Assembly: GCF_024868665.1 (NCBI RefSeq)
Contig: NC_079906.1
Coordinates: forward strand, 8,368,238 to 8,432,237
Direction of reading: 5' to 3'
Length of the DNA: 64,000 nucleotides
From: Triplophysa rosa
Lineage: Eukaryota; Chordata; Actinopteri; Cypriniformes; Nemacheilidae
In this document: positions 36,672 to 64,000 of the stretch, one piece after another
How positions within the stretch are numbered: the first letter of the stretch is position 1
Layout: each line of letters begins with the position of its first letter
Position numbers and translations under genes: made by a program
Notes under the pieces: model-generated
The model's database searches: none
Seen by the model: only the letters and a program-made list of their open reading frames with translations
Told to the model about the DNA's origin: nothing

Positions 36672-38036
36672 TAAAAGGCTTTAAAACATAGTCCCAGCGT
36701 TGGATATCATTTGTCATTTTGGTGCAACCAGCCAGATATATTTTGACAAAAGACCTACTGTAATCTGAAATGCCAGAGTAATGAATTCAGGTTTCGATAA
36801 TTGGTTTTCGACAGCAAAATAAGAGCTAGACGCAGGAAACATTTAAAACTAACTTCAAATGCTTCTTTCTTTAGTCATTAGAAATAACTGAATGGACTGC
36901 AATTGACAGATAAGCTTAATATAATTACTTAATATATGATGACAAAACACATATCTGTAACATTGTTAATTCCATTTGGCTTGCCAAAACATGCACACTG
37001 AATGTTTTGAGGATATGTGCAAGAATATAACATGTTCAGCAGCAAATATTGCTTACCAAATACTTGTTAGCTCATTTATCCCTGAGGAAATGAATAGTTG
37101 AGATTTCTTGCTATTACTGTAGATGGCACATAATGGTACCATTATAACTAGCATAAATTAAGGTGAATTAATTCATAATATTACTAATGTAACACAAAGA
37201 CCTTTAACTTTGAATAAATATTCATCATCTTGTCCCAGAAACAAATGAAGGAAATATTGACATCAGAGTGGAATGAAGAAATCCCTCATGGGACATTTGA
37301 CATTGACACAACCTTTTCTATTCCACATTTGTTGAAAAGCAGTGCGTGGGATATCTCGCAAAGGAAAAGCTGGTTTGTATCTGTCCGAGGTGATGGATAC
37401 TAGCAATGGAAAGTGGAGAGGCGACTGCATGAAGGACCTAGATTGAAGGTGAATGAATGTCTTTATATAACTGTTCTTCAATCTGAGACTCCAACTAGAG
37501 AAACGAGGGAGAGAACTTGATGCTCTTATGAATCGAGATCATTTGACGTTCCACATGACGTTCTCAAAACCACTATGCATGCTACTTTTTTAAGGCAAAA
37601 CGTTTTTCAACATAATCGGTCGAGAGTTTAATACGGTGGGCAAGGTTTCATAGATGCAACTGAAGAGTCATTCAAAAGGCGATTTGGGTCTCCATAAAAC
37701 CCACCCAAGGCTAGGTGACACATCATCACCTACAGTTTCGCACACCGCACCACATTCGCACACACGCAGGATCACACACAAACACTCAGTCCCGGAATCA
37801 ATCACACATAAAGGTCAGTTACAGTATGACCATCTCCTACTCACCTAATGGGGCCCTAATGGAGAAAAGCTCATGAAACACGAGAGCCTTTCCTCAAAGG
37901 AAGTAGATGCATCCCTCAAAACACTTTCACCTTGGACAAACTCTGCAATCAATACTGTATATCCCAGTGTACCCGTTTATCTATCAGTCCATCCATCATC
38001 CAGTCATCTATCCATCGCTGTGGTTTTAGAAGAGGG
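36672..38036. other. Intergenic stretch, nothing recognised
   Basis: AT-rich unique sequence without supported genes or paired repeat ends. Confidence 0.3.
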
Positions 38037-38491
38037 ATCATATGGAGCCAGAAATATGACAAAACAATCTGAATTTGAATTTTGTAAATCTGCATTTTAG
38101 ATAAGTGTAATTGCACAAAATTGAATATTTCCTGACGTTCAATATAGTTCTGAATTTGAATTTTATAAATCTGAATTTTAGATAAGTGCAATTGCACAAA
38201 ATTGAATATTTCCTGACATTCAATATACTCTAGTTCTGAATTTGAAATTTCTTAAATTTAATATAGAAAAATTCAAAACGCAGAAATTCAGATTCAAATT
38301 CAGATTCAAATTCAGAAATGGTTCAGTGGGTAAGGTTAGCTTCCGGGTTCGACAGGGAAGAGTAGAAGATCTCGGAAAAATCAAACGGAGCGCTTTGGCC
38401 ACAATGGCCAGTTATTTGTTCTTATTATCCAATCAAAATCCAAACATGCTGTTTTGGAGAGTGGAACTTCTTACATTGCAATAAAAAGGAT
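38037..38491 (+). repeat. Left arm of a large foldback
   Basis: This arm is an inverted copy of 40633-41102, estimated above 90% identical. It runs from 'gatcatatggagccag' to 'cattgcaataaaaaggattt'. Inside are two tandem units of about 85 bp ('ctgaatttgaattttgtaaa') and a tRNA-like stretch 'gtgggtaaggttagcttccg' followed by 'ggttcgac', which resembles pol III A- and B-box spacing. Open frames in the arm are by-products of the repeat. Confidence 0.85.
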
Positions 38492-39163
38492 TTAAATTTT
38501 TCAAATTGCGACCACGCCCACAAGACTACACGGGTTGATCGTTTGTTGCTGCAGCATAGCCAAGCTCATATCGCTGCAATCTTAGGCAGCTGCCCGGGGT
38601 GTGTGCGCTCACTGCCTGCGTTTTTGCCTGTTGCCTCCACTGTTTGCGCTCACTCCCAGCGTTTGCTGTTGGTGCTTTTACCCACTGTGTGCTTAGTGCA
38701 CGCTCGCTGCCAGCTGCACCACTATGCGCGCTGGCTTCGAGCGTTTGTGGGTGCATATACATTTAATATATTAGACATGTATACAATATATAAAGAACGT
38801 TTGTGGGTCCTGCAAAGTCAATGACATACGTGGAACGCTGCAATAAAAGTTATGTATAACATCTAGTGCTACAATAGAGAGAAAATGAATAAACCAAGTT
38901 ACAGACTGAAATAATAACTTTGTAATAAAAAATAGTGTGTAATAGTATTGAAATGCTATAACTTTGATCCAAGACACATAACGACCAGCTGAAACAATCT
39001 GGACACAGCACGCGTAAAGATTTTTTCTTATGACTATAGCCGATTCCGGTCTTTGTCAGTCAGAAAGGAGCACACACCTAACTGCTGTGCCAGACCACTA
39101 CACCACACATTCAATGACTGGACGTTCTTCTGAACCAACGAATCTATCGATCTATGTTATATT

Positions 39164-39752
39164 TGTCACGGCGGTGCGTGGAGAAGAACCCAATAGCAGG
39201 CAGGCAGTGAAGGGGTTAACAAAAGACGTTTATTTAAGTAATCAAAACACAAAACAAAGACCCGCGATGGGGAAAACCAAAAACTAGACAATAAAGTTAA
39301 CTGGACAAAAAACACAAAGACAAGATAAAAGAACAATACTACACAAACATTACTAATGAACTTACAAAAACTTGACTTGACTAGGGCTTTCAACAGAACA
39401 CTGGAAGAGCCAGGAACATGTACAACCACATGCAAGGACCAGGTACAACCACATGCAAGGACCAGGTACAACCACATGCAAAGAACAATCCACAAGCAAC
39501 AAGACAAAGAAACATGAGGGTATATATAGGGAGAGACAAACGAGGGATAATGACACAGGGCAGGTGTGGGTAATAAAACACTCAGGGAAAGATAACAAGG
39601 AAACGAGAGGAGCGGGCCAATGACGAGACACGAGAAAACACATGAGAAGTAAAACCAAACAACTCATGGTCTTCTCACATAAAACCTAAGGACTCTGCCC
39701 CGATCCCGCCACACGACTAGAATTTCATAAACAAGACGGTGGGACCATGACA
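39164..39752 (-). mobile_element. Solo LTR (minus strand), Gypsy-like family
   Basis: A 589-bp unit begins TGTCACGG and ends CATGACA with perfect 'atatt' duplications at 39159-39163 and 39753-39757. On the minus strand it has a TATA box (complement of tatatata, 39521-39528) and AATAAA (complement of 39229-39234), then a GGGTTCT motif near the U5 end. It lies in the loop of the foldback at 38037-41102. No internal retroelement genes remain. Confidence 0.88.
39412..39483. repeat. 23-bp tandem repeat inside the solo LTR
   Basis: Three tandem copies of a 23-bp unit containing 'tacaaccacatgcaaggacc' lie in the U3 part of the solo LTR. They make the minus-strand frames there repetitive, and those frames are not genes. 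Confidence 0.85.
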
Positions 39753-40344
39753 ATATTCCCGTTTTGTCAGTAAAGCAACCATGATGTTCGTGTTTTTTGT
39801 ATGGTTATGCACTTTCTGTTTCATGCAGATTAAACATTTTGATAATGATAACAAGAGAGCATTTATTCCTCAATTATTTGACATGTAAAAAATAACTTGC
39901 CTGCATATTTTCGATAAAGGAACTCAGGACATAATGTAAGTTTGTTGTGGATATACTATAAATAATATGTTGAGTAATATATGACTGGAAACGCCATACC
40001 TTAATATCCAGGTGCATTTGCTGCGTTCGTTTTGCAGGCTACTGTATAGTACATAGAATATGTGTTTATTTTTATTTCATTTAGACTGTATTCACTAAAA
40101 CGCATAAACGGATAGCTTTTTTATTTTGCGTTGACAAAGTAGGCTATATTTAGCTTAAGGTGGAGGTGTTTGTTTGCTAAAGGAAAATCTTTTTGTTTTA
40201 ATTGTACCTCATTGCTACTTGTACTTCATATAAATAAATTAATAAAAGTACTTTAAAACTGCAGTCGTTGTCATTTAAAAATATCTACATAGAAATAACC
40301 CAACAATAGCTTTTATATTTTTCTCATTTCTCTATATCATTGTG

Positions 40345-40567
40345 AAAGTGAAAGAAAGTGACCTATTAGTCAGATATGGTGACCCATACCCGAAATGTGA
40401 CCTCTGCTTTTAACCCATCCAGAGAGTAGTGAACACACGCACAGCAAGTGGTGAACACACGTACACCCAGAGCAGTGGGCAGCTATCACTGCAGCGCCCG
40501 GGGAGCAAGTAGGGGTAAGGTGCTCTGGTCACGAGTCCGACTCTCTAACCATTAGGCCACGACTGCC
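40345..40567 (+). repeat. tRNA-related SINE
   Basis: It matches a well-known fish SINE through 'tatggtgacccatacccgaa', 'ttttaacccatccagag', 'agcagtgggcagctatcact' and the end 'taaccattaggccacgactg'. The end is a tRNA-derived segment in inverted orientation. It lies in the foldback loop. Confidence 0.75.
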
Positions 40568-40632
40568 CCTGTTTGTCTGTGTTCAGTCTTTAGCTGTGAA
40601 CACATATCTGCCCAATATGAACAACTACTGAA

Positions 40633-41102
40633 AAATCCTTTTTATTGCAATGTAAGAAGTTCCACTCTCCAAAACAGCATGTTTGGAGTTTGATTGGATA
40701 ATAAGAACAAATAACTGGCCATTGTGGCCAAAGCGCTCCATTTGATTTTTCCGAGATCTTCTACTCTTCCCTGTCGAACCCGGAAGCTAACCTTACCCAC
40801 TGAACCATTTCTGAATTTGAATCTGAATCTGAATTTGAATCTGAATTTGAAACTGAATTTCTGCGTTTTGAAATTTTCTATATTAAATGTAAGAAATTTC
40901 AAATTCAGAACTATATTGAATGTCAGAAAATATTCAATTTTGTGCAATTACACTTATCTAAAATTCTGATTTACAAAATTCAAATTCAGAACTATATTGA
41001 ACGTCAGGAAATATTCAATTTTGTGCAATTACACTTATCTAAAATTCAGATTTACAAAATTCAAATTCAGATTGTTTTGTCATATTTCTGGCTCCATAGG
41101 AT
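40633..41102 (-). repeat. Right arm of the large foldback
   Basis: Inverted counterpart of 38037-38491. It starts 'aaatcctttttattgcaatg' and ends 'ctggctccataggatc'. Together the arms could form a 450-bp stem with a 2.1-kb loop. No clean target duplication flanks the pair ('agagg' on the left, 'agagc' on the right). Confidence 0.85.
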
Positions 41103-41302
41103 CAGAGCATTACCACAGAGTTAAACTTATGGCGGGTTCAAACAACACAATTTTGTTTGTTACGATACTCACTGTGTCAGATTGTGATTTTGACTCCTAA
41201 ATTATGGTAATGTCATGTTCAACAATCATGTCAGACTACATGCCGATTTTTGGCCAATCACAGTGTGGTGTCATAAAACGGCATGTGTGATATCATGTGC
41301 GC

Positions 41303-44106: not shown

Positions 44107-44382
44107 AACTACACCTTTGTTTTTGTCCCCATTTTTCATGAGCTGAACTCAAAGATCTAAGACTTTTTCTATGTACACAAAAGGCCTATTTCTCTCAAAT
44201 GTTGTTCACAAATCTGTCTAAATCTGTGTTAGTGAGCACTTCTCCTTTGCCGATAATCCATCCACCTCACAGGTGTGGCATATCAAGATGCTGATTAGAC
44301 AGCAGGATTATTGCACAGGTGTGCCTTAGGCTGGCCACAATAAAAGGCCACTCTAAAATGTGCAGTTTTATCACACAGCACA

Positions 44383-45024
44383 ATGCCACAGATGTCGCAA
44401 GTTTTGAGGGAGCGTGCAATTGGCATGCTGACTGCAGGATTGTCCACCAGAGCTGTTGCCCATGAATTGATGTTCATCTCTCTACCATAAGCCGTCTCCA
44501 AAGGCGTTTCAGAGAATTTGGCAGTACATCCAACCGGCCTCACAACCGCAAACCACGTGTAACCACACCAGCCCAGGACCTCCACATCCAGCATATTCAC
44601 CGCCAAGATCATCTGAGATCAGCCACCCGGACAGCTGCTGCAACAATTGGTTTGCATAACCAAAGAATTTCTGCACAACTGTCTCAGGGAAGCTCATCTG
44701 CATGCTCGTCGTCCTCATCGGGGTCTTGACCTGTCTGCAGTTCGTCATCGTAACCGACTTGAGTGGGAAAATGCTCACATTCGATGGCATCTGGCACTTT
44801 GGAGAGGTGTTCTCTTCACGGATGAATCCCGGTTTTCACTGTACAGGGCAGATGGCAGACAGCGTGTATGGCGTTGTGTGGGTGAGCCATAACCCTAACC
44901 CTAACCCAGCCATTGAAGAGGAGTGGACCAACATTCCACAGGCTGCAATCAACAACCTGATCAACTCTATGAGAAGGAGATGTGCTGCACTGCGTGAGGC
45001 AAATGGTGGTCACACCAGATACTG
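44383..45024 (+). pseudogene. Broken Tc1-like transposase
   Basis: From the ATG at 44383 one frame gives a helix-turn-helix-like N-terminus (MPQMSQVLRERAIGMLTAG) interrupted by several stops. It then runs on to an intact RGVLFTDESRFSLYR segment holding the first catalytic Asp of the DDE domain. After 44886 the frame breaks: a telomere-like filler replaces the middle of the gene, and the sequence resumes in the C-terminal region (EEEWTNIPQAAINNLINSM). The second Asp and the Glu are therefore missing. A full-length enzyme would be about 340 residues. Confidence 0.85.
44887..44907 (+). repeat. Short telomere-like repeat at a deletion junction
   Basis: The sequence 'aaccctaaccctaaccc' (44891-44907) is about three units of the vertebrate telomeric repeat. 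It sits exactly where the Tc1 transposase loses its middle. The flanking transposase sequence is collinear with the family on each side. Confidence 0.85.
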
Positions 45025-45347
45025 ACTGGTTTTCAGAACCCCTTGGACCCTCCCAATACAGTAAAACTGCACATTTTAGAGTGGCCTTTTATTGTGGCCA
45101 GCCTAAGGCACACCTGTGCAATAATCATGCTGTCTAATCAGCATCTTGATATGCCACACCTGTGAGGTGGATGGATTATCTCGGCAAAGGAGAAGTGCTA
45201 ACTAACACATATTCAGACAGATTTTTGAACAATATTTGAGAGAAAAGGCCTTTTGTGTACATAGAAAAAGTCTTAGATCTTTGAGTTCAGCTCATGAAAA
45301 ATGTGGGCAAAAACAAAAGTGTTGCGTTTATAATTTTGTTCAGTGTA

Positions 45348-47656: not shown

Positions 47657-48205
47657 TGTCACAACTCTGTCCTTCCTATCATGAGGTTTCTGGTCTGTGG
47701 ACGGAGTTGTGACGGTGCCATGTCTTTTGTGCTTGTTTTGTTATGTGTGGAGGACACGTGGCCATTGTTGTTTACTTTGTGCTGCGTGTTCTCCTGTCAT
47801 GTCATTCAGCCCCGCCCTCCTGTCACACGTAATTATTGCCCGTTGTGTGTGATCTCTGTCACCTGCCCGTCACGTCCCTTGTGTAATTTTCCCTCGTTAG
47901 TGTTCCCTTATATAATGCCCCTTTGTTCTCTGTCTGTTGTCGTTTTGTTGTCAAACTTGTTGTCGTGAGAACTACATGTCAATCCCTTCGTGTCGTTGGT
48001 GTAGTAAGTCTCGAGTTGTTCATGTTTATCTGTTTCCCTAGTCTAGCTCTGTTTCTACCTTTTTGGTTATGGTGTTTGTTTTGTTTTAACGAGTATTATT
48101 TGCCTGTTTTCCCCCTCGTGGGTTTTGTTTTGTATTTTTGTTGAATAAAGACATTTTCTGTACTCTCCTGTCTGCGACTGGGTTCTGCCAAACCGATCTG
48201 TGACA
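47657..48205 (+). repeat. 5' LTR of element 1
   Basis: 549 bp from TGTCACAA to TGTGACA. A TATA-like box (47908-47916) and AATAAA (48144-48149) give a plausible U3-R-U5 layout. U5 contains CTGGGTTCT, whose complement AGAACCCAG lies just inside the element at 48224-48232. Confidence 0.9.
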
Positions 48206-48251
48206 GAACAAAACGACCAATAAAGAACCCAGCGGACAGGAGCACAACGCA

Positions 48252-49415
48252 ATGCGGTGGCCGTGTGCTTCTAACCGGGAGTGGTGGAGTTCCATTGCCT
48301 CCCAATCCCACGCCGGCGATGGGCCATTCCCGGCTCAAGGCCATCGTCCCATGCAGGACTACGCCCGGGAGCTAGAGGCGAGGAGGGGTACCTTCCCTGA
48401 GGTGCTGGTGAGTGCCTATCTGGTGGCCGGGATGGATAATCCTCCACCCCTAGCTGAACGGGAGGAGCTGATTTATTTGCCATTTTCTCGGTTGGTGGAT
48501 CAGCTGCACTCTCGAGAGAAGCGGCTAGATGGCGTCGCTTCCAGCTGCCCCCAGGACTCCTCCCGTTTCAGTCTGGGTACTGTTCCGGAGGACCACGTCC
48601 TGGTCACCAGGGCCGTGGGGCTCTCAGTCCGGTCCATCCCAGCATCCTCAGGTCGGGGCCCTCCCAGCCTCCGTGGAAGGCGTGGGAGAAGGAAGTCATG
48701 GGACTCCCCATCTGACTCTTCAGGCACGGAGAGGGCTCCCCCACCATCTGCACCCCTGCAGCCAGCCACGTGTTCAGTGGTCCGACCCCGGCGGAAGAAG
48801 AAGAAGAGGGGGTTGTTGTCTTTTCCGCCGGCACCTCTGCCAGCATTCCAGCCGGCGAACCAGCCGGTTATCCAGGCGGCACCCCAGCCGATATTCCAGC
48901 CGGGGTCCAGTCCGGTGGTCCAGCCGGAGTCCAGTCCGGTGGTCCAGCCGGCGTCCAGTCCGGTGGTCCAGCCGGCGTCCAGTCCGGTGGTCCAGCCGGC
49001 GGTCCAGCCGGCGTCCAGTCCAGTGATCCAGCCGGCGTCCAGTCCGGTGATCCAGCCGGCGTCCAGTCCGGTGCGGCCGGCGTCAAGCCCTGTCCAGCCG
49101 GCCTTCCAGCCGGCGTCAAGCCCTGTCCAGCCGGCCTTCCAGCCGGCGTCAAGCCCTGTCCAGTCGGCCTTCCAGCCGGCGTCAAGTCTGGTCCAGCCGG
49201 TCTTCCAGCCGGTCCCTGGGAGCATCCCAGGGCCGAGGATTGTTCCCCCCAGGACTTCCCCCTTGATCTCTTTTGTTTCCCCACCCTCCCTCCCATGTGT
49301 GTTATTTTTATTGGCCCACCCCAACCCCGTCCTTGTTTCTTCCATGTTGCCCTTAGTCTGTTCTGTGTTGTGTATATGGTGTATGTCCTTGTGTTTCTCT
49401 GTTCTTGCCCGCTGA
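48252..49415 (+). CDS. Gag-like protein with proline-rich octapeptide repeats
   Basis: This is a 387-codon frame starting 46 bp after the 5' LTR. Residues about 28-75 (AQGHRPMQDYARELEARRG and onward) resemble the capsid-type helical segment of Gypsy Gag proteins: Gln-Gly, an aromatic, then LExx. They align with the 'QGNSDIMEFADRFLEAA' segment of element 2. A Ser/Arg/Lys-rich linker (about 135-195, with PRRKKKKRG) follows and could bind RNA or act as a nuclear signal. From about residue 200 come tandem octapeptides of the QPASSPVV type, then a hydrophobic, proline-rich tail. There is no zinc knuckle, protease or polymerase. It may serve as a structural Gag for a parasite-like element. The repeats lengthen by minisatellite slippage. 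Confidence 0.65.
   Translation: MRWPCASNREWWSSIASQSHAGDGPFPAQGHRPMQDYARELEARRGTFPEVLVSAYLVAGMDNPPPLAEREELIYLPFSRLVDQLHSREKRLDGVASSCPQDSSRFSLGTVPEDHVLVTRAVGLSVRSIPASSGRGPPSLRGRRGRRKSWDSPSDSSGTERAPPPSAPLQPATCSVVRPRRKKKKRGLLSFPPAPLPAFQPANQPVIQAAPQPIFQPGSSPVVQPESSPVVQPASSPVVQPASSPVVQPAVQPASSPVIQPASSPVIQPASSPVRPASSPVQPAFQPASSPVQPAFQPASSPVQSAFQPASSLVQPVFQPVPGSIPGPRIVPPRTSPLISFVSPPSLPCVLFLLAHPNPVLVSSMLPLVCSVLCIWCMSLCFSVLAR
48895..49215. repeat. 24-bp coding minisatellite of element 1
   Basis: The unit 'cagccggcgtccagtccggtg' plus three bases repeats about a dozen times with 24-bp and related periods, encoding QPASSPVV-like octamers. The period is a multiple of three and no unit contains a stop on either strand, so every overlapping frame stays open, including a 322-codon antisense frame (48500-49468). 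Confidence 0.9.
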
Positions 49416-49449
49416 GGATTCTCCCTTGGGACGCCATGAGTCGTCCCTT

Positions 49450-49462
49450 GGAGCGGGGGTAG
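49450..49462 (+). promoter_or_regulatory. Polypurine tract of element 1
   Basis: 'ggagcgggggtag' lies directly before the 3' LTR. The same sequence, apart from its last base, precedes the 3' LTR of element 2, as expected for the plus-strand DNA primer of LTR elements. Confidence 0.8.
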
Positions 49463-49774
49463 TGTCACAACTCTGTCCTTCCTATCATGAGGTTTCTGGT
49501 CTGTGGACGGAGTTGTGACGGTGCCATGTCTTTTGTGCTTGTTTTGTTATGTGTGGAGGACACGTGGCCATTGTTGTTTACTTTGTGCTGCGTGTTCTCC
49601 TGTCATGTCATTCAGCCCCGCCCTCCTGTCGCTCGTAATTATTGCCCGTTGTGTGTGATCTCTGTCACCTGCCCGTCACGTCCCTTGTGTAATTTTCCCT
49701 CGTTAGTGTTCCCTTATATAATGCCCCTTTGTTCTCTGTCTGTTGTCGTTTTGCTGCCAAACCGATCCGTGACA
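49463..49774 (+). repeat. 3' LTR of element 1, internally deleted
   Basis: 312 bp, nearly identical to the first 280 bp of the 5' LTR and to its last 25 bp, but lacking about 237 bp in between, including the poly(A) signal. The deletion joins 'gttgtcgttttg' to 'ctgccaaaccgat'. It keeps TGTCA and TGACA ends and an intact target duplication, so the loss is internal and later. Confidence 0.88.
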
Positions 49775-55457: not shown

Positions 55458-56094
55458 TGTCACGGTACGGGGACAGAACCCAAGCGCAGACAGGTGAAGG
55501 GTTAAATAATAAACTTTTAATAACAAATAGGAACAAAAAACCCACGATGGGGAAAACGGTCACAAACAAAACAAGTAAATAAACTAAAATACTTCCCGCA
55601 AGGGGATAAAATAAACACGATGAATAAATCCAAAATAATAAGTCCAACACGAAAAGGAAAGTCCACAGCAAACAGGAATGAGGGATCTGGAACACGAGGG
55701 CAAGGTAAGGTGAGGTAAACAAATACTGGGGAACATGGAACAATGCAAAGACGAGGGACAAAGGGAACTGAGACATTAAATAAGGAAACATTAACGAGGG
55801 ATAATTACACAGGGACGGTGAAGGACAGGTGAGGGAGATGAAACACTAACAGACAAACAAGGGGGCAGAGCTAAACGAAAGACAGGAGAACACGCGGCGA
55901 AATGTCAAAACAAACCGCACGTGTCTCCACACAAGACGAAACACACACACAAGACATGGTACTNACGCGGCGAAATGTCAAAACAAACCGCACGTGTCTC
56001 CACACAAGACGAAACACACACACAAGACATGGTACTGTCACGACCCTGTCCACAAGACATGAAAACTCAGAATAGGAAGGACAGGACCCTGACA
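55458..56094 (-). repeat. 3' LTR of element 2 with internal duplication and an N
   Basis: 637 bp. A unit of about 72 bp containing 'cgcggcgaaatgtcaaaaca' is present twice (55893-55964 and 55966-56037), separated at an ambiguous base (n at 55964). The 5' LTR has it once, so the duplication may be an assembly artefact at a gap. This LTR also has about 97 bp that the 5' LTR lacks. Confidence 0.85.
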
Positions 56095-56107
56095 GTACCC
56101 CCGCTCC
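56095..56107 (-). promoter_or_regulatory. Polypurine tract of element 2
   Basis: On the minus strand 'ggagcgggggtac' abuts the 3' LTR. It is identical to that of element 1 apart from the last base. Confidence 0.8.
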
Positions 56108-56259
56108 AAGGGCCGAACCCCGAACGGCCCAAGGGGAAAACATTCAGCGGGACAAAACAGACAGAAACGAAGAAAGACACCACACATACAAAACAGAACA
56201 TACTAGGGGCAGGGCCGACAGAACAACGAAGGGGTTGGGGTTGGACAATAAGAAAAACA

Positions 56260-57625
56260 TTAACGGGAAGGGAGGGGGGGAATGGGCTGAAAAAAACTGG
56301 GAACACTAAACTGGGGTGGGACAGGGGGTGTGGACCTAGGAGGGACATGGGTATGTTTCCTAGGGTGGGGAGGGGCAGGACGGGAAGGGACAGACATGGC
56401 AGGGGAAGGCTGGGACAATAATGGCTGGACGGGACTGGACGCCAGCTGGAAGGCCGGCTGACAAAGGCTAGGTGCCGGCTGGAAAGCTGGCCGGACTCGA
56501 CTGGACGCCGGCTGGAGGGCCGGCTGGATGGGACTGGACGCCGGCTGGAAGGCCGGCTGGACGGGACAGGATGCCGGCTGGAAGGCTGGCTGGACGGGAC
56601 AGGATGCCGGCTGGAAGGCCGGCTGGACGGGACTGGACACCGGCTGCACCGGCTGGACTGCCGGCTGAAGCACCGGACTGGACACCGGACTGGACGTCGG
56701 CTGCACCGGACTGGACACCGGCTGCACCGGACTGGACACCGGCTGGATAACCGGCTGGGACGCCGGCTGCATCGCCGGCTGGGACGCCGGCTGGATAACC
56801 GGCTGGGACACCGGCTGCATCGTCGGCTGGATAACCGGCTGGGACGCCGGCTGGATAACCGGCTGGGACGCCGGCTGCATCGTCGGCTGGATAACCGGCT
56901 GGGATGCCGGCTGGATAACCTGCTGGATAACCGGCTGGTACGCCGGGTGCATCGCCGGCTGGATAACCGTCTGGGACGCCGGCTGGATAACCGGCTGGGT
57001 TGGGTTCCGTGCCTCCCTCCGTTGCCTCTTCTTTTTTAGCCGAGCCAGTGATCGGCTGGAGGAAGGAGGTGAAGTGCACGGCTGGCTCAGGGTTGGAGGC
57101 CTCTGATGAGGACTCCCACGACTCTCGCCTCCCCCTCTTGCCACCGAGGCTGGCTGGGGGTGGAGAGGTGGTGGAAGGTGAGGCGGATGGTGTGGCGATG
57201 CCCATAACCCCGATTTGCAGGGTGCGGCCCTCAGGGATCGCGACCAGTGGAGATGGATTTTTCTAATGGACTGAGACCCTGGGCTCTGGACGGTTCATGG
57301 CGAAAGTGAACATGCCATCGATGCCCAGCGGTCTCAGCATCCTCATCTCCGCCGGCGATAGAGGATCCCTGAGGCCGCGGTTGAACAATGCCGTCACCTC
57401 CTCCTCACCAAAGACCCCCTCCCCTGCAGCCTCCAGGAACCTGTCCGCAAACTCCATGATATCGGAGTTTCCTTGCCAAAGACTGCAGAGGCGGGGAGCA
57501 TGACGGGACCGCTTGGAGCGGCCCCCGCTGCCTGCTGGGTTCTTCTTTGGTCTTTCTGTCACGGTACGGGGACAGAACCCAAGCGCAGACAGGTGAAGGG
57601 ATAAATAATAAACTTTTAATAACAA
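56260..57625 (-). pseudogene. Broken Gag-like / octapeptide-repeat gene of element 2
   Basis: The Gag-like part (about 57263-57545) contains QGNSDIMEFADRFLEAA and 'EVTALFNRGLRDPL', resembling the C-terminal capsid segment of Gypsy Gag and aligning with element 1. A stop at 57263 interrupts it. The same frame resumes through a KRGRRESWESSSEA linker (matching element 1's RRGRRKSWDS), then shifts into the repeat frame of QPASQPVI octamers (56470-57010). The gene is disabled by at least one stop and one frameshift. No zinc finger, protease or polymerase. Confidence 0.65.
56470..57010. repeat. 24-bp coding minisatellite of element 2
   Basis: More than twenty units of about 24 bp, rich in 'gccggctgg' (plus strand). 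All are multiples of three and free of stops, so several frames on both strands are open. Confidence 0.9.
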
Positions 57626-58024
57626 ATAGGAACAAAAAACCCACGATGGGGAAAACGGTCACAATCAAAACAAGTAAATAAACTAAAATACTTCCCGCAA
57701 GGGGATAAAACAAACACGATGAATAAATCCAAAATAATAAGTCCAACACGAAAAAGGAAAGTCCACAGCAAATAGGAATGAGGGATATAGACATTAAAGA
57801 GGGATAATTACACAGGGATGGTGAAGGACAGGTGAGGGAGATGAAACACTAACGGAGAAACAAGGGGGCGGAGCTAAACGAAAGACAGGAGAACACGCGG
57901 CGAAATGTCAAAACAAACCGCACGTGTCTCCACACAAGACGAAACACACACACAAGACATGGTACTGTCACGACCCTGTCCACAAGACACGAAAACTCCT
58001 AATAGGAAGGACAGGACCCTGACA
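57557..58024 (-). repeat. 5' LTR of element 2
   Basis: 468 bp, TGTCACGG to CCTGACA on the plus strand. On the minus strand its U5 carries GGGTTCT, and AGAACCC follows just inside the element (complement of 57538-57544), repeating the arrangement seen in element 1. Confidence 0.88.
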
Positions 58025-60675: not shown

Positions 60676-60753
60676 TGTCAGGAAAACACTAGGGAAGAAC
60701 CCAGATGCAGGCAGCGGGGATGAAGGGTGTTGGACTTTAAAGGCAGTCCTGCA
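60676..60753 (-). mobile_element. Fragment of a Gypsy-like LTR (U5 end)
   Basis: 'tgtcagg' followed by 'aagaacccagatgcaggcag' matches the U5 ends of the LTRs at 22090, 39164 and 55458, including the GGGTTCT motif on the minus strand. It is cut off by the ERV LTR. Confidence 0.6.
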
Positions 60754-61514
60754 TGTTCAAAAATTTGAAGAGACAATTTGCTCAAAAGTAATATAAGGTT
60801 TTATTATCAGATGTAAAAAGGTAACAAAGCTTTGGGTTGCCAGTAAATCACCACTCTCTCCAAAAAGCCAACAACCACAACCATTTCCTGACACCCATAT
60901 TTTATACAGAATGTGACGTCGTTCTATCTTCTGACCCCGCCTTTGCCTTTTAAGGAGTGTTGTTCTCTTTCCACCAATCACCATACGCCACGTTTATCTG
61001 CTTAGTTCCTGAAAAATAAAACCTTCTCAAAACATACATCCTGTGGTCAGTCGCTAGTATTGAGGAATGTTCTCCAGGGACACCCTCCCCCAAGGAGTGG
61101 TCTCCTAAAAACAGTCTCCTGTGGCCGAACAATATACTAACATTCCCAACATTCTTCCAGTAAAAAGAAAACACTTAATCATCTAATGTTTTTAATTATA
61201 TAGCGTTGTTTCTTAATCCTATGATTCATTAAAACACATCACAACTCATGATTATACTTAGAACATATGCAGTGGATTGATTCATAACATTTATTTTTCT
61301 TTGTGACTCTTTATATGTGTGTGTGTTTATCTAGATAATTTACGACTCCAACCCCCAACTTTCTCTGTTTTCTTTGTTTGCCCCAGGAACTTTCCACTGA
61401 GTGAAATAGAAAGCACATGACCAAAACACACAGCTTAATGAAACAAATGAAAGAAAACACTTATTGATTATATTGATATTTAAATCATACTTTTATCTAA
61501 AAAATATTCCCACA
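60754..61514 (-). mobile_element. 3' LTR of a gamma-type endogenous retrovirus
   Basis: On the minus strand the LTR starts TGTGGGAAT right after a polypurine tract. It has a TATA box (complement of 60898-60906) and AATAAA about 100 bp downstream (complement of 60800-60805), a normal U3-R-U5 layout. The end at 60754 (TG on the plus strand) is the best candidate but is not confirmed, because the partner LTR lies outside the window and no target duplication can be checked. Confidence 0.7.
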
Positions 61515-61526
61515 ATTCCCTCTCTT
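61515..61526 (-). promoter_or_regulatory. Retroviral polypurine tract
   Basis: AAGAGAGGGAAT on the minus strand lies between env and the LTR start. It would prime plus-strand DNA synthesis and fixes the LTR boundary at 61514. Confidence 0.8.
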
Positions 61527-61563: not shown

Positions 61564-63585
61564 TCATACATAATTTTCTTCCTCATTTTCTGTTAGATCA
61601 CTTGATAACAGGGGCATACTGTAAGATGGTGGAGATTCTTTTTTTTCAATAGCTGTAACAATTAACCTATTACACAGTGATCTAATACAAGGAATACAAC
61701 AACATCCACAAGTACTCAATATGCCTAAGAAAACTCCTATTGACACTAAAATAGACATCACCATGGCCTTCCATTTTCCCAACGTTGCATCTAACCAATC
61801 TCCGAAAGGGTTATTTATACCGGAGTGCTCCTTCATCTCTACAGACAATGTCTTCAATCCCTCTAATGCTCTAGTAACCGATCCATCTTGGGCTGTATTG
61901 TTTGGAATGTATGTGCAACACAACTCTCCAAACATGAAACACACTCCTCCTTTCTCTGCTAACAGCATATCTAAAGCCATGCGATTTTGGATGGCCATCA
62001 AAGAAGTTGGGGCCAGCTGCTCAGCCAACCCATCAACAGCATCTCTGGTCATGTTTGCCAATCTCATGACATTATAATGTACGTAATTTATTCTATCTAC
62101 ATTTTTGTTAGGGGTGACTGGGAAAAATGCAGATATTATCGGTATGTTCTCAAATCCTGATGCTATCTGATCTACTAACTTGTACTCTTGTGGTACTCCC
62201 CTAGGAACTCCTATTGCATCAATGTATGTAGGGCTGTTCAATGACAAATCTACACTTGAACCTGTTGCCCTCTTCCTGAGGATATGTCTTCTGCGTCTTC
62301 TGGCAAGTGTGGCTGAACTTATACTTTCCTTTTTTACAGTTTTCTCACCGATTAAGGCAATGGGGGCTCCCAACCTTACCATAGCACACATTCCTTTTGC
62401 TCCCTCAGGTATTCTAGTAAACAGTCTACGATCTCCACAATAGTAATACAATCCTGCTCTAGCCCATGTTCCTATTTGTGTCCCTTTATCTATCACTATC
62501 TGATTACACCAGTCACTACTTATTTCCCCTAGGTTACTTTTTGGTGAGTTATGTGTAATGTTAAAACACGTGTAGTTTGCTTTCTGTGGTGTGAATGGTC
62601 CTGCCTTTGAGTAATTTGATATGGGTGGAAATATTGCTGCCAACGTGGTACAATTTGGTGGTGATGCTTGACGTGTCAAGGCTAGCATACACCTGTAGCC
62701 CCAAGCATCATTTGGATACAAGGGTGCAGGTTCTGTGTGTAATTTAGGTCTTGCGTTAGCACACCCTACACAATCATCTAACCCCTGTTCTCTGGCTGTG
62801 GTAATTATCCATTCCAGCCATAAATTGTTTTCCCCATATCCTGTGGCTTTCTCTATTATGTCTTCTGGTTTCAATTTAGTGTAGTCTATTTCTACTACTT
62901 CATTTTTTGGGTTCTTTACTGACAGTGTCTCTGATGTGTTAGTTGCCTTTGGTTTGGGTTCTATTATATTTATTTTGAGTAAAGTTTTTGGATCCTTACC
63001 AGTTACATCTACCCCCAACATAAAGTAATATGAGTTCCCATTTCTTCCCCAACAAACATCCTTTCTGGTAGTCTCAGATTTTTTCTCATAAATGTGTCCT
63101 CTCTGTTCCCTTATAGAAAATGTGATTGGGTTCTGTGAGTTACTGTAATCTCTCTGTATGGACACCTTATTGGCCTTGTGTGAATTTTTATAGTCCCTGT
63201 TTGTTGCTACCCACACATGTCCACATGTGGGACACCATGTAGGCTCTGGCCTCTCCATCCCACACACATACACATCATATCCTCTCCAAGAGCTATTCTT
63301 CCCTCCGCAATCAATTACTGCGCACAAATCAAACGTGAAACTTCCCCCTGACCCATTGAGATAATCCAATTCTATTCCCCCATACCTCTGTAAACACGGG
63401 TCTATTGATGTAACTGACCTTTTCCTCCTGTTTTTTGAATGGGTACGGTTTTCCCCCTGGTCAGTTTCATTACCTTGCCTATTCTCATCTGTTTCCTTCT
63501 TCCCTGTTCCGAATAGGGATCCTACTATCACCACTGCCAACATTCCTAGTATCCCCAACAACCTCCAGTTTTCCCACAGCTTCAT
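61564..63585 (-). CDS. env: Endogenous retrovirus envelope glycoprotein (intact frame)
   Basis: 673 codons, with no stop or frameshift. A hydrophobic segment at residues 9-25 is the signal or leader, followed by a basic RRKR at 53-56 that could release a leader peptide. The surface subunit has a CPTC (118-121) and a CVGC (272-275), the latter like the CXXC of gamma-type Env, plus several N-glycosylation sequons. A dense basic run ending RKR at 437-439 is the likely furin site. The transmembrane subunit has heptad-rich helices and a CX6CC motif (549-557), a membrane span at about 605-630 followed by a Cys cluster, and a 40-residue tail. No strongly hydrophobic fusion peptide directly follows the cleavage site; a hydrophobic patch at about 480-490 may serve. 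It lies between the macrodomain frame and the 3' LTR. It is probably expressed from a spliced RNA. Confidence 0.93.
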   Translation of the reverse strand: MKLWENWRLLGILGMLAVVIVGSLFGTGKKETDENRQGNETDQGENRTHSKNRRKRSVTSIDPCLQRYGGIELDYLNGSGGSFTFDLCAVIDCGGKNSSWRGYDVYVCGMERPEPTWCPTCGHVWVATNRDYKNSHKANKVSIQRDYSNSQNPITFSIREQRGHIYEKKSETTRKDVCWGRNGNSYYFMLGVDVTGKDPKTLLKINIIEPKPKATNTSETLSVKNPKNEVVEIDYTKLKPEDIIEKATGYGENNLWLEWIITTAREQGLDDCVGCANARPKLHTEPAPLYPNDAWGYRCMLALTRQASPPNCTTLAAIFPPISNYSKAGPFTPQKANYTCFNITHNSPKSNLGEISSDWCNQIVIDKGTQIGTWARAGLYYYCGDRRLFTRIPEGAKGMCAMVRLGAPIALIGEKTVKKESISSATLARRRRRHILRKRATGSSVDLSLNSPTYIDAIGVPRGVPQEYKLVDQIASGFENIPIISAFFPVTPNKNVDRINYVHYNVMRLANMTRDAVDGLAEQLAPTSLMAIQNRMALDMLLAEKGGVCFMFGELCCTYIPNNTAQDGSVTRALEGLKTLSVEMKEHSGINNPFGDWLDATLGKWKAMVMSILVSIGVFLGILSTCGCCCIPCIRSLCNRLIVTAIEKKESPPSYSMPLLSSDLTENEEENYV

Positions 63586-63737
63586 CCCGTTCCTGCTGTA
63601 TTCACCCTCTCTAGTGATGCCTTGTTATCTTTGCGAGATCAACACTTCTTAAAAACTTAATACCTTAAAGCCTGTAAGAAAACACTCTTAAAAATACCCT
63701 TTTAAACCTGAAACTAGAAAAATATGAAACAACATTT

Positions 63738-63790
63738 AAAATCACACAATAATGAAAACTTAATGAAATCACACAATAATGAAAACTTGA
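63738..63790. repeat. 27-bp tandem duplication between macrodomain and env
   Basis: The words 'atcacacaataatgaaaact' occur at 63741 and again at 63768. The second copy ends at the macrodomain stop codon. The rest of 63586-63737 is AT-rich and noncoding and could hold the env splice acceptor, which I cannot place. Confidence 0.75.
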
Positions 63791-64000
63791 TTATAAGGAA
63801 TAAATGGTTATTTGTATGTCCACGTCCGTGAACACTTCACACAGAATCTTTTGTACTTTCTTGAAGTCTAGTTTATCTATGCCACACCCCAGCCGGGGTA
63901 CTGAGACACTTCTTACTCTATGAGCCACACACCAATCTCTCATGTGTTTTAGGCTCTCTGTGAAACAGTCATATGTTGGTAAATCAGTACATTGTTCTTT
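63791..64000 (-). CDS. C-terminal half of a TARG1/OARD1-like macrodomain in the retrovirus (partial)
   Basis: An open frame enters from the window edge and ends at TAA (63791-63793), giving 69 residues. It aligns without gaps to residues 84-152 of human OARD1/TARG1, the host hydrolase that removes ADP-ribose from acidic residues of proteins. The PTY motif (8-10), the PRLGCGID loop (35-42) and the final ITIYSL all fall at equivalent positions, and both proteins stop at the same residue. Lys1 and Asp42 correspond to the catalytic Lys84 and Asp125 of TARG1, so the enzyme could be active. Same strand as env and 205 bp 5' of it. Whether it is fused to Pol or a separate protein cannot be seen. A host OARD1 retrocopy is the alternative, made unlikely by its place in the provirus. 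Confidence 0.8.
   Translation of the reverse strand, partial: KEQCTDLPTYDCFTESLKHMRDWCVAHRVRSVSVPRLGCGIDKLDFKKVQKILCEVFTDVDIQITIYSL

What the first reader, a model, noticed from the sequence alone, without database searches (positions are those of the whole stretch)
63791..64000. Endogenous retrovirus carrying a TARG1-like macrodomain just upstream of env
Seen: an open frame on the proviral strand, 205 bp before env, aligns gap-free with the last 69 residues of the host ADP-ribosyl hydrolase OARD1/TARG1 and stops at the same residue. Both catalytic positions (Lys84 and Asp125 in TARG1) are retained. Known: macrodomains that remove ADP-ribose counter host PARP defences in several RNA viruses; the usual accessory enzyme of retroviruses is dUTPase, not a macrodomain. 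Inference: a fish retrovirus captured a host hydrolase, as a Pol extension or a separate accessory gene, to reverse antiviral ADP-ribosylation. Related fish copies may already sit unnoticed in databases.
Basis: partly seen in the sequence, partly recalled or inferred. Interest (0 to 1): 0.9.

Follow-up and report, generated by a model that had tools for sequence, protein, structure and literature searches.

The report
Fish retrovirus with host-like ADP-ribose eraser
A family of retroviruses buried in a fish genome carries, at the end of its polymerase-integrase protein, a copy of a cellular enzyme domain that removes ADP-ribose tags; the general kind has been in print since 2009, and what this study adds is how it is fused and that it has been kept intact by selection.

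Summary
The last 210 bases encode, on the minus strand, the C-terminal 69 residues of a TARG1/OARD1-type macrodomain, 205 bp before a 673-codon gamma-type env and a 3' LTR. A genome search scored 40 copies; I read pieces of the other 39. In 22 of 39 one frame runs without a stop from the integrase C-terminal region through a linker into the macrodomain; two copies held at greater length are open for 569 residues. So it is a C-terminal extension of Pol, not a retrocopy or assembly join. The macrodomain passes an open-frame test in 33 of 39, and all 33 keep Lys84 and Asp125. It shows purifying selection (pN/pS 0.215) like the neighbouring integrase part (0.196), unlike the linker (1.25, imprecise). 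Host OARD1 lies elsewhere, in separate exons, and is 45-48% identical to the five retroviral domains compared. Three diverged retroviral lineages here share the layout. Macro-domain ORFs in fish epsilon-like ERVs are already in print (Basta 2009, cited in PMC4977317), so the kind is known. ADP-ribose erasure for the virus is the likeliest function; it is untested.

The parts
63791..64000 (-). C-terminal 69 codons plus stop of the TARG1-like macrodomain, the end of Pol by comparison with other copies; the rest lies outside the window
   Evidence: full-length domain seen in other copies
63586..63790 (-). 205-bp spacer between the macrodomain stop and the env ATG; 85-90% identical over its main part in the 7 other 3.2-kb loci; holds a consensus-like 3' splice site (TTTTCTTACAG, ending at 63672) upstream of env
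   Evidence: the splice site is a sequence match only, and other AGs with pyrimidine tracts lie nearby
61564..63585 (-). env, 673 codons, gamma-type (TLV_coat), open frame
61515..61526 (-). polypurine tract AAGAGAGGGAAT abutting the LTR
   Evidence: sequence; inference
60730..61514 (-). 3' LTR, starting TGTGGGAA; outer end approximate; matched end to end in 4 of 8 loci (L002, L003, L005, L006; 68-88% identity) and in part in L004; L001, L007 and L008 show none within the stretch held
   Evidence: no second copy in the window

Best explanation
This is the 3' part of a fish endogenous retrovirus whose Pol polyprotein carries a complete TARG1-class macrodomain as a C-terminal extension, fused in frame behind the integrase through a variable linker of about 35-45 residues (shown for other copies of the same family in this genome). 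Most likely it is made as part of Gag-Pro-Pol, packaged, and carried into the next cell with the reverse-transcription and integration complex. There it would remove ADP-ribose from proteins or nucleic-acid ends with the Lys84/Asp125 chemistry of TARG1, and so blunt host ADP-ribosylation aimed at the virus (inferred). Env would come from a spliced RNA whose acceptor lies in the spacer after the macrodomain (inferred from sequence).
For: Fusion: 22 of 39 copies have no stop over about 303 codons ending at the macrodomain stop; L002 and L008 are open for 569 residues, with integrase-like sequence upstream; the own-genome protein search reports open frames of 1,536-1,537 aa around the domain in 5 of 149 rows. 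Kept function: 33 of 39 macrodomains pass the open-frame test, with Lys84 and Asp125 in 33 of 33; pN/pS 0.215 (95% 0.13-0.31, 23 distinct sequences) against 0.196 (0.12-0.29, 14 distinct) in the integrase part and 1.25 (0.52-5.4, 14 distinct) in the linker. TARG1 class: profile match to TARG1 E 1.4e-31; fold search ranks TARG1 entries 1-8. Recurrence: ERV1, ERV2 and ERV3 lineages with the same order.
Against: No activity was measured. pN/pS is uncorrected for multiple hits, mixes divergence before and after insertion, and used only the 33 domains that passed, out of 39 copies chosen by closeness to the window. The linker ratio rests on few silent changes (pS 0.031). The fold model is weak (mean pLDDT 57). 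P0126, a relative, has Arg at the Lys84 place. The window's own copy outside the window is withheld, so its own fusion was not read. In L003, L004, L005, L007 and others the integrase part is broken although the macrodomain is open.
Confidence: 0.6

Rival explanations
1. The macrodomain is a reader, not an eraser: fused behind the integrase it tethers the integration complex to ADP-ribosylated chromatin or DNA ends, as chromodomains do behind the integrases of chromoviruses (recalled).
For: Position directly after the integrase C-terminal region; a macrodomain can bind without cleaving.
Against: The catalytic pair is kept in 33 of 33 open domains, which a pure reader would not need.
Confidence: 0.2
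2. The domain acts on a viral or metabolic target (for example ADP-ribosylated nucleic-acid ends, DarG-like, or O-acetyl-ADP-ribose) rather than on host antiviral PARP marks. This overlaps the best explanation and differs in the substrate only.
For: NCBIfam's only match up to E 1 is DarG (P0126 E 1.4e-11, window fragment E 5.4e-8), though at 44.2 and 32.5 bits against a cutoff of 250; TARG1 also acts on ADP-ribose phosphoesters at nucleic-acid ends and on O-acyl-ADP-ribose (PMC7050489 passages).
Against: Nothing tested here separates the substrates.
Confidence: 0.25
3. A passenger: a captured host domain that rides along without a role.
For: 6 of 39 copies fail the open-domain test, one of them (L006) by a stop just ahead of the domain.
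Against: pN/pS as low as in the integrase part, with a relaxed linker between them; several diverged lineages keep it.
Confidence: 0.08
4. It is the host OARD1 gene, its retrocopy, or an assembly join beside an unrelated provirus.
For: Similarity to OARD1.
Against: 40 scored places at 94-100% identity, the window's own included; the same spacer lies downstream in 8 of 8 loci, env-like sequence in 7 of 8 (not L004), integrase-like sequence upstream in 7 of 8, the eighth being withheld there; a host OARD1 gene was found separately, in separated exon pieces.
Confidence: 0.01

Closest known systems
Fish epsilon-like endogenous retroviruses with macro domain ORFs (Basta et al. 2009, J Virol 83:10152; cited in PMC4977317)
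   Same: Fish retroviral elements carrying a macro domain ORF (from the review's sentence)
   Different: Basta 2009 itself is not held, so I cannot say whether it already shows the integrase fusion, the TARG1 class or the selection; the RT phylogeny of this element was not tested here
TARG1/OARD1 (C6orf130), ALC1-like macrodomain hydrolase
   Same: About 45% identical to human TARG1 over the compared part, same C-terminal end, Lys84 and Asp125 kept
   Different: Sits at the end of a viral polyprotein and is intronless; host OARD1 is a separate gene in several exon pieces
DarG (bacterial DNA ADP-ribosyl glycohydrolase)
   Same: Same macrodomain class; NCBIfam and Foldseek neighbour
   Different: Far below the family cutoff; the review says DarG keeps only the lysine of the pair (PMC7050489 passages)
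Macrodomains of alphaviruses and coronaviruses
   Same: Virus-borne macrodomains inside a polyprotein
   Different: Alphavirus entries rank below TARG1 and DarG in the fold search at 14-22% identity, and no coronavirus entry is among the 50 listed; these are RNA viruses, not retroviruses
Chromodomain behind integrase in chromoviruses (recalled)
   Same: A chromatin-mark-related module fused at the integrase C terminus
   Different: Unrelated domain and a reader, whereas this one keeps a catalytic pair

Membership tests
TARG1/OARD1-type hydrolase | Sequence and fold closest to TARG1 among solved structures | tested here: met
   phmmer E 1.6e-13, profile E 1.4e-31, Foldseek ranks 1-8 (model mean pLDDT 57)
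TARG1/OARD1-type hydrolase | Catalytic Lys84 and Asp125 | tested here: met
   33 of 33 open domains; K in 38 of 39 and D in 37 of 39 of all copies, the exceptions being frame-broken; also in L042-L044 (ERV2) and L046 (ERV3), read by eye; P0126 elsewhere has Arg at 84
TARG1/OARD1-type hydrolase | Minimal domain without N- or C-terminal extensions (PMC7050489 passages) | tested here: not met
   In frame behind integrase in 22 of 39 copies; the domain itself has no C-terminal addition. So I file it as TARG1-like, not as a TARG1 protein
TARG1/OARD1-type hydrolase | Hydrolysis of ADP-ribosyl bonds | not testable with these tools
   needs an assay
Endogenous retrovirus | Integrase, env and LTR in order, multicopy | tested here: met
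   the 5' LTR of the window's copy was not seen
Epsilon-like fish ERV with macro domain | RT phylogeny in the epsilon-like group | not tested
   RT not examined; env is gamma-type
OARD1 processed pseudogene | Isolated copy close to host OARD1, no retroviral flanks | tested here: not met

The most novel reading that the evidence does not exclude
A lineage of vertebrate retroviruses delivers an active ADP-ribosyl hydrolase inside the particle as the tail of its integrase, so that marks set by host PARPs on the incoming complex or at the integration site are erased; the trait is old, recombines between lineages, and is maintained like a core enzyme.
Probability: 0.35. Interest if true: 0.78.

Novelty: new member of a known kind. 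Interest (0 to 1): 0.55.

Why it matters
Whether ADP-ribosylation restricts retroviruses, and whether a retrovirus answers it with its own eraser, can be tested directly on a purified domain. The multicopy record in one fish genome gives a natural selection test, and it points to integrase fusion, that is to delivery in the particle, rather than to an ordinary accessory gene.

Tried and rejected
Rejected: retrocopy and assembly join; a stand-alone accessory ORF as the original state (the frame runs on from integrase in 22 of 39 copies); recent capture from this host (45-48% identity). A capture from another host is open: human TARG1 and this genome's OARD1 were the only cellular sequences compared.

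Led nowhere: scans of viral contigs with env, an env alignment and two macrodomain queries and of genome contigs with both alignments gave no confirmed relative. Rfam: no match at gathering thresholds. A solved-structure search with a possible 2H-phosphoesterase piece of P0111 gave one chance-level row (E 1.1). dN/dS against other fish was not possible, as their DNA was not reached. LTR dating of the window's copy was not possible. Literature: some searches answered; one (retrovirus, macrodomain, integrase, teleost, all four needed) listed 0 papers; others failed. I make no claim that the integrase fusion is unpublished.

Full report
What is in the window. The last 210 bases hold, on the minus strand, a 69-codon open frame with its stop that matches the end of human TARG1/OARD1 at E 1.6e-13 and ends at the same residue. 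Identity is 26 of 68, and 0 of 20,000 shuffles score as high. The numbering (152 residues, recalled) puts Lys84 and Asp125 on K and D. On the minus strand the frame is followed by a 205-bp spacer, a 673-codon env (61564-63585, TLV_coat), a polypurine tract and a 3' LTR of about 785 bp. Of 236 env relatives 120 were listed; the rows that bear an organism name are fish, sharks included, except P0007, filed under Aeromonas salmonicida.

Which genome. The window lies on contig C17 of a 684.8-Mb assembly. Contig C4 of it has the same length, 32,984,518 bases, as the contig of an envelope protein named from Triplophysa rosa, a loach (P0019). I take this as the likely species; it is an inference.

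Other copies. The 210 bases were found in 40 scored places of 116 candidates, at 94-100% identity. The part of the window's own provirus that lies outside the window is withheld, so I read the other 39 copies (L002-L040). They were picked by closeness to the window and are not a random sample. In 22 of 39 there is no stop over the piece read, about 303 codons that end at the macrodomain stop; in two of the 22 the integrase part is incomplete (L021 has a run of N, L013 begins in other sequence). Two copies held at 3.2 kb, L002 and L008, are open for 569 residues. Integrase-like sequence lies upstream in 7 of 8 of the 3.2-kb loci, the eighth being the withheld one. The macrodomain passes the open-frame test (last 144 residues without a stop, with its N-terminal motif) in 33 of 39; the six that fail are L006, L012, L026, L035, L036, L037, and L006 fails only by a stop just ahead of the domain. 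Lys84 is K in 38 of 39 and Asp125 is D in 37 of 39; the exceptions (L026, L035, L036) are frame-broken, and 33 of 33 open domains keep both. Env-like sequence follows in 7 of 8 loci, not in L004. In several copies, such as L003, L004, L005 and L007, the integrase part is broken while the macrodomain is open.

Selection. By Nei-Gojobori counts without multiple-hit correction, pN/pS of the macrodomain is 0.215 (bootstrap over codons 0.13-0.31; 23 distinct sequences from the 33 open domains). In the integrase part it is 0.196 (0.12-0.29, 14 distinct, copies open there only) and in the linker 1.25 (0.52-5.4, 14 distinct, few silent changes). Failing domains were left out, the copies are related, and the figure mixes divergence before and after insertion. 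Even so, the macrodomain is held as tightly as the integrase part beside it.

Mosaic. The open domains fall into two types, A (13) and B (20). In codons 11-76 A and B are 78.5% identical, against 94.8% in codons 77-144 and 98.9% in codons 1-10 (ten codons only); within types codons 11-76 are 95-96% identical. This is the mark of recombination between two diverged forms of the same domain.

More lineages, and the host gene. A protein search of the same genome gave 149 rows, with 150 of 159 candidates scored. I fetched 12 further macrodomain pieces besides the host gene. Besides the window's family (ERV1 and near kin such as L047 and L052) there are ERV2 copies at 50-51% identity to P0125 (L042-L045, one with a stop) and ERV3 at 59% (L046; L049 is a broken relative), with the same order of integrase end, linker and macrodomain. 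Five of the 149 rows report open frames of 1,536-1,537 aa around the domain; I did not read those frames through. The ERV1 and ERV2 linkers are alike (0 of 2,000 shuffles as high); for the ERV3 linker the likeness is doubtful (42 of 2,000 against ERV1, 532 of 2,000 against ERV2, 126 of 2,000 against P0135). A host OARD1 gene was found on C21 in four separated exon pieces, introns being inferred from the separation. It is 62% identical to human TARG1, whereas the five retroviral domains compared (of 16 in the tree) are 45-48% identical to it. In the tree the host pair is split from the ERV domains with support 100/98 (18 rows), and again after dropping P0127 and P0131 (16 rows). The first tree, drawn from a midpoint root, puts ERV2 next to the host pair on a short branch (80/82) and warns that long branches meet there. 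This fits one old capture from a spliced messenger but does not prove it: no outgroup was at hand.

Relatives elsewhere. A protein search found 16 relatives of the fragment. P0135 runs in one frame from integrase-like sequence into the macrodomain (0 of 2,000 shuffles reach its score against P0111), and P0136 runs from the macrodomain into env-like sequence. Of the 16, P0130 and P0132-P0136 leave the frame inside the domain, and P0131, a partial record, ends just there with Val at the Asp125 place. P0126 has Arg at the Lys84 place.

Structure. The model of P0126 from 9 sequences is weak (mean pLDDT 57, pTM 0.58). Its eight best PDB matches are all TARG1/C6orf130 entries.

Known literature. PMC4977317 (passages) states that fish epsilon-like sequences occasionally include ORFs for a CNPase or macro domain proteins, citing Basta et al. 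2009, which is not held. PMC4245714 (passages) says TARG1-like homologues occur in numerous viral genomes but only a few keep all the needed residues. PMC7050489 (passages) describes TARG1 chemistry. PMC7729036 (passages) deals with viral macrodomains; the places with 'retrovir' concern PARP13 and reference titles. PMC10499221, PMC8672886 and PMC9967133 were seen in passages only.

How it most likely works. Shown: fusion behind the integrase in sister copies, purifying selection, the catalytic pair kept. Inferred: translation within Gag-Pro-Pol, packaging, release or retention on integrase, and removal of ADP-ribose marks that host enzymes place on the incoming complex, its DNA ends or nearby chromatin. 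The chief rival is a reading or tethering role like that of integrase chromodomains (recalled).

Noticed in passing
P0111, a public fish protein related to the window's env: A stretch with two HxT-type motifs (by eye) weakly matches the 2'-5' RNA ligase superfamily (E 0.0019, below cutoff) and Acb1 (E 0.013, below cutoff); it may be the CNPase-like ORF that the 2016 review mentions. The own-genome search for it did not complete.
   Followed up: partly
L002-L040, macrodomain codons 11-76: Two forms of the N-terminal half of the macrodomain are exchanged between otherwise about 95-99% identical copies, a recombination mosaic.
   Followed up: partly
window 55458-58024 and 47657-49762: Pairs of near-identical direct repeats (203 and 176 nt, 97-98%, about 2.0-2.1 kb apart; 300 nt, 99%, 1.8 kb apart) around GC-rich tandem repeats with 12-, 24- and 33-bp spacing, looking like short LTR-type elements.
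   Followed up: no
window 38036-41103 and 44111-45322: Long inverted repeats (arms of 74-208 nt, 88-99% complementary) that look like terminal inverted repeats of DNA transposons.
   Followed up: no
window 63739-63790: A short tandem repeat of about 27 nt lies just after the macrodomain stop in the spacer before env (read by eye).
   Followed up: no
P0007; P0127, P0128, P0131: Fish-type retroviral proteins are filed under bacterial MAG names (Aeromonas, Plesiomonas), probably host contamination.
   Followed up: no
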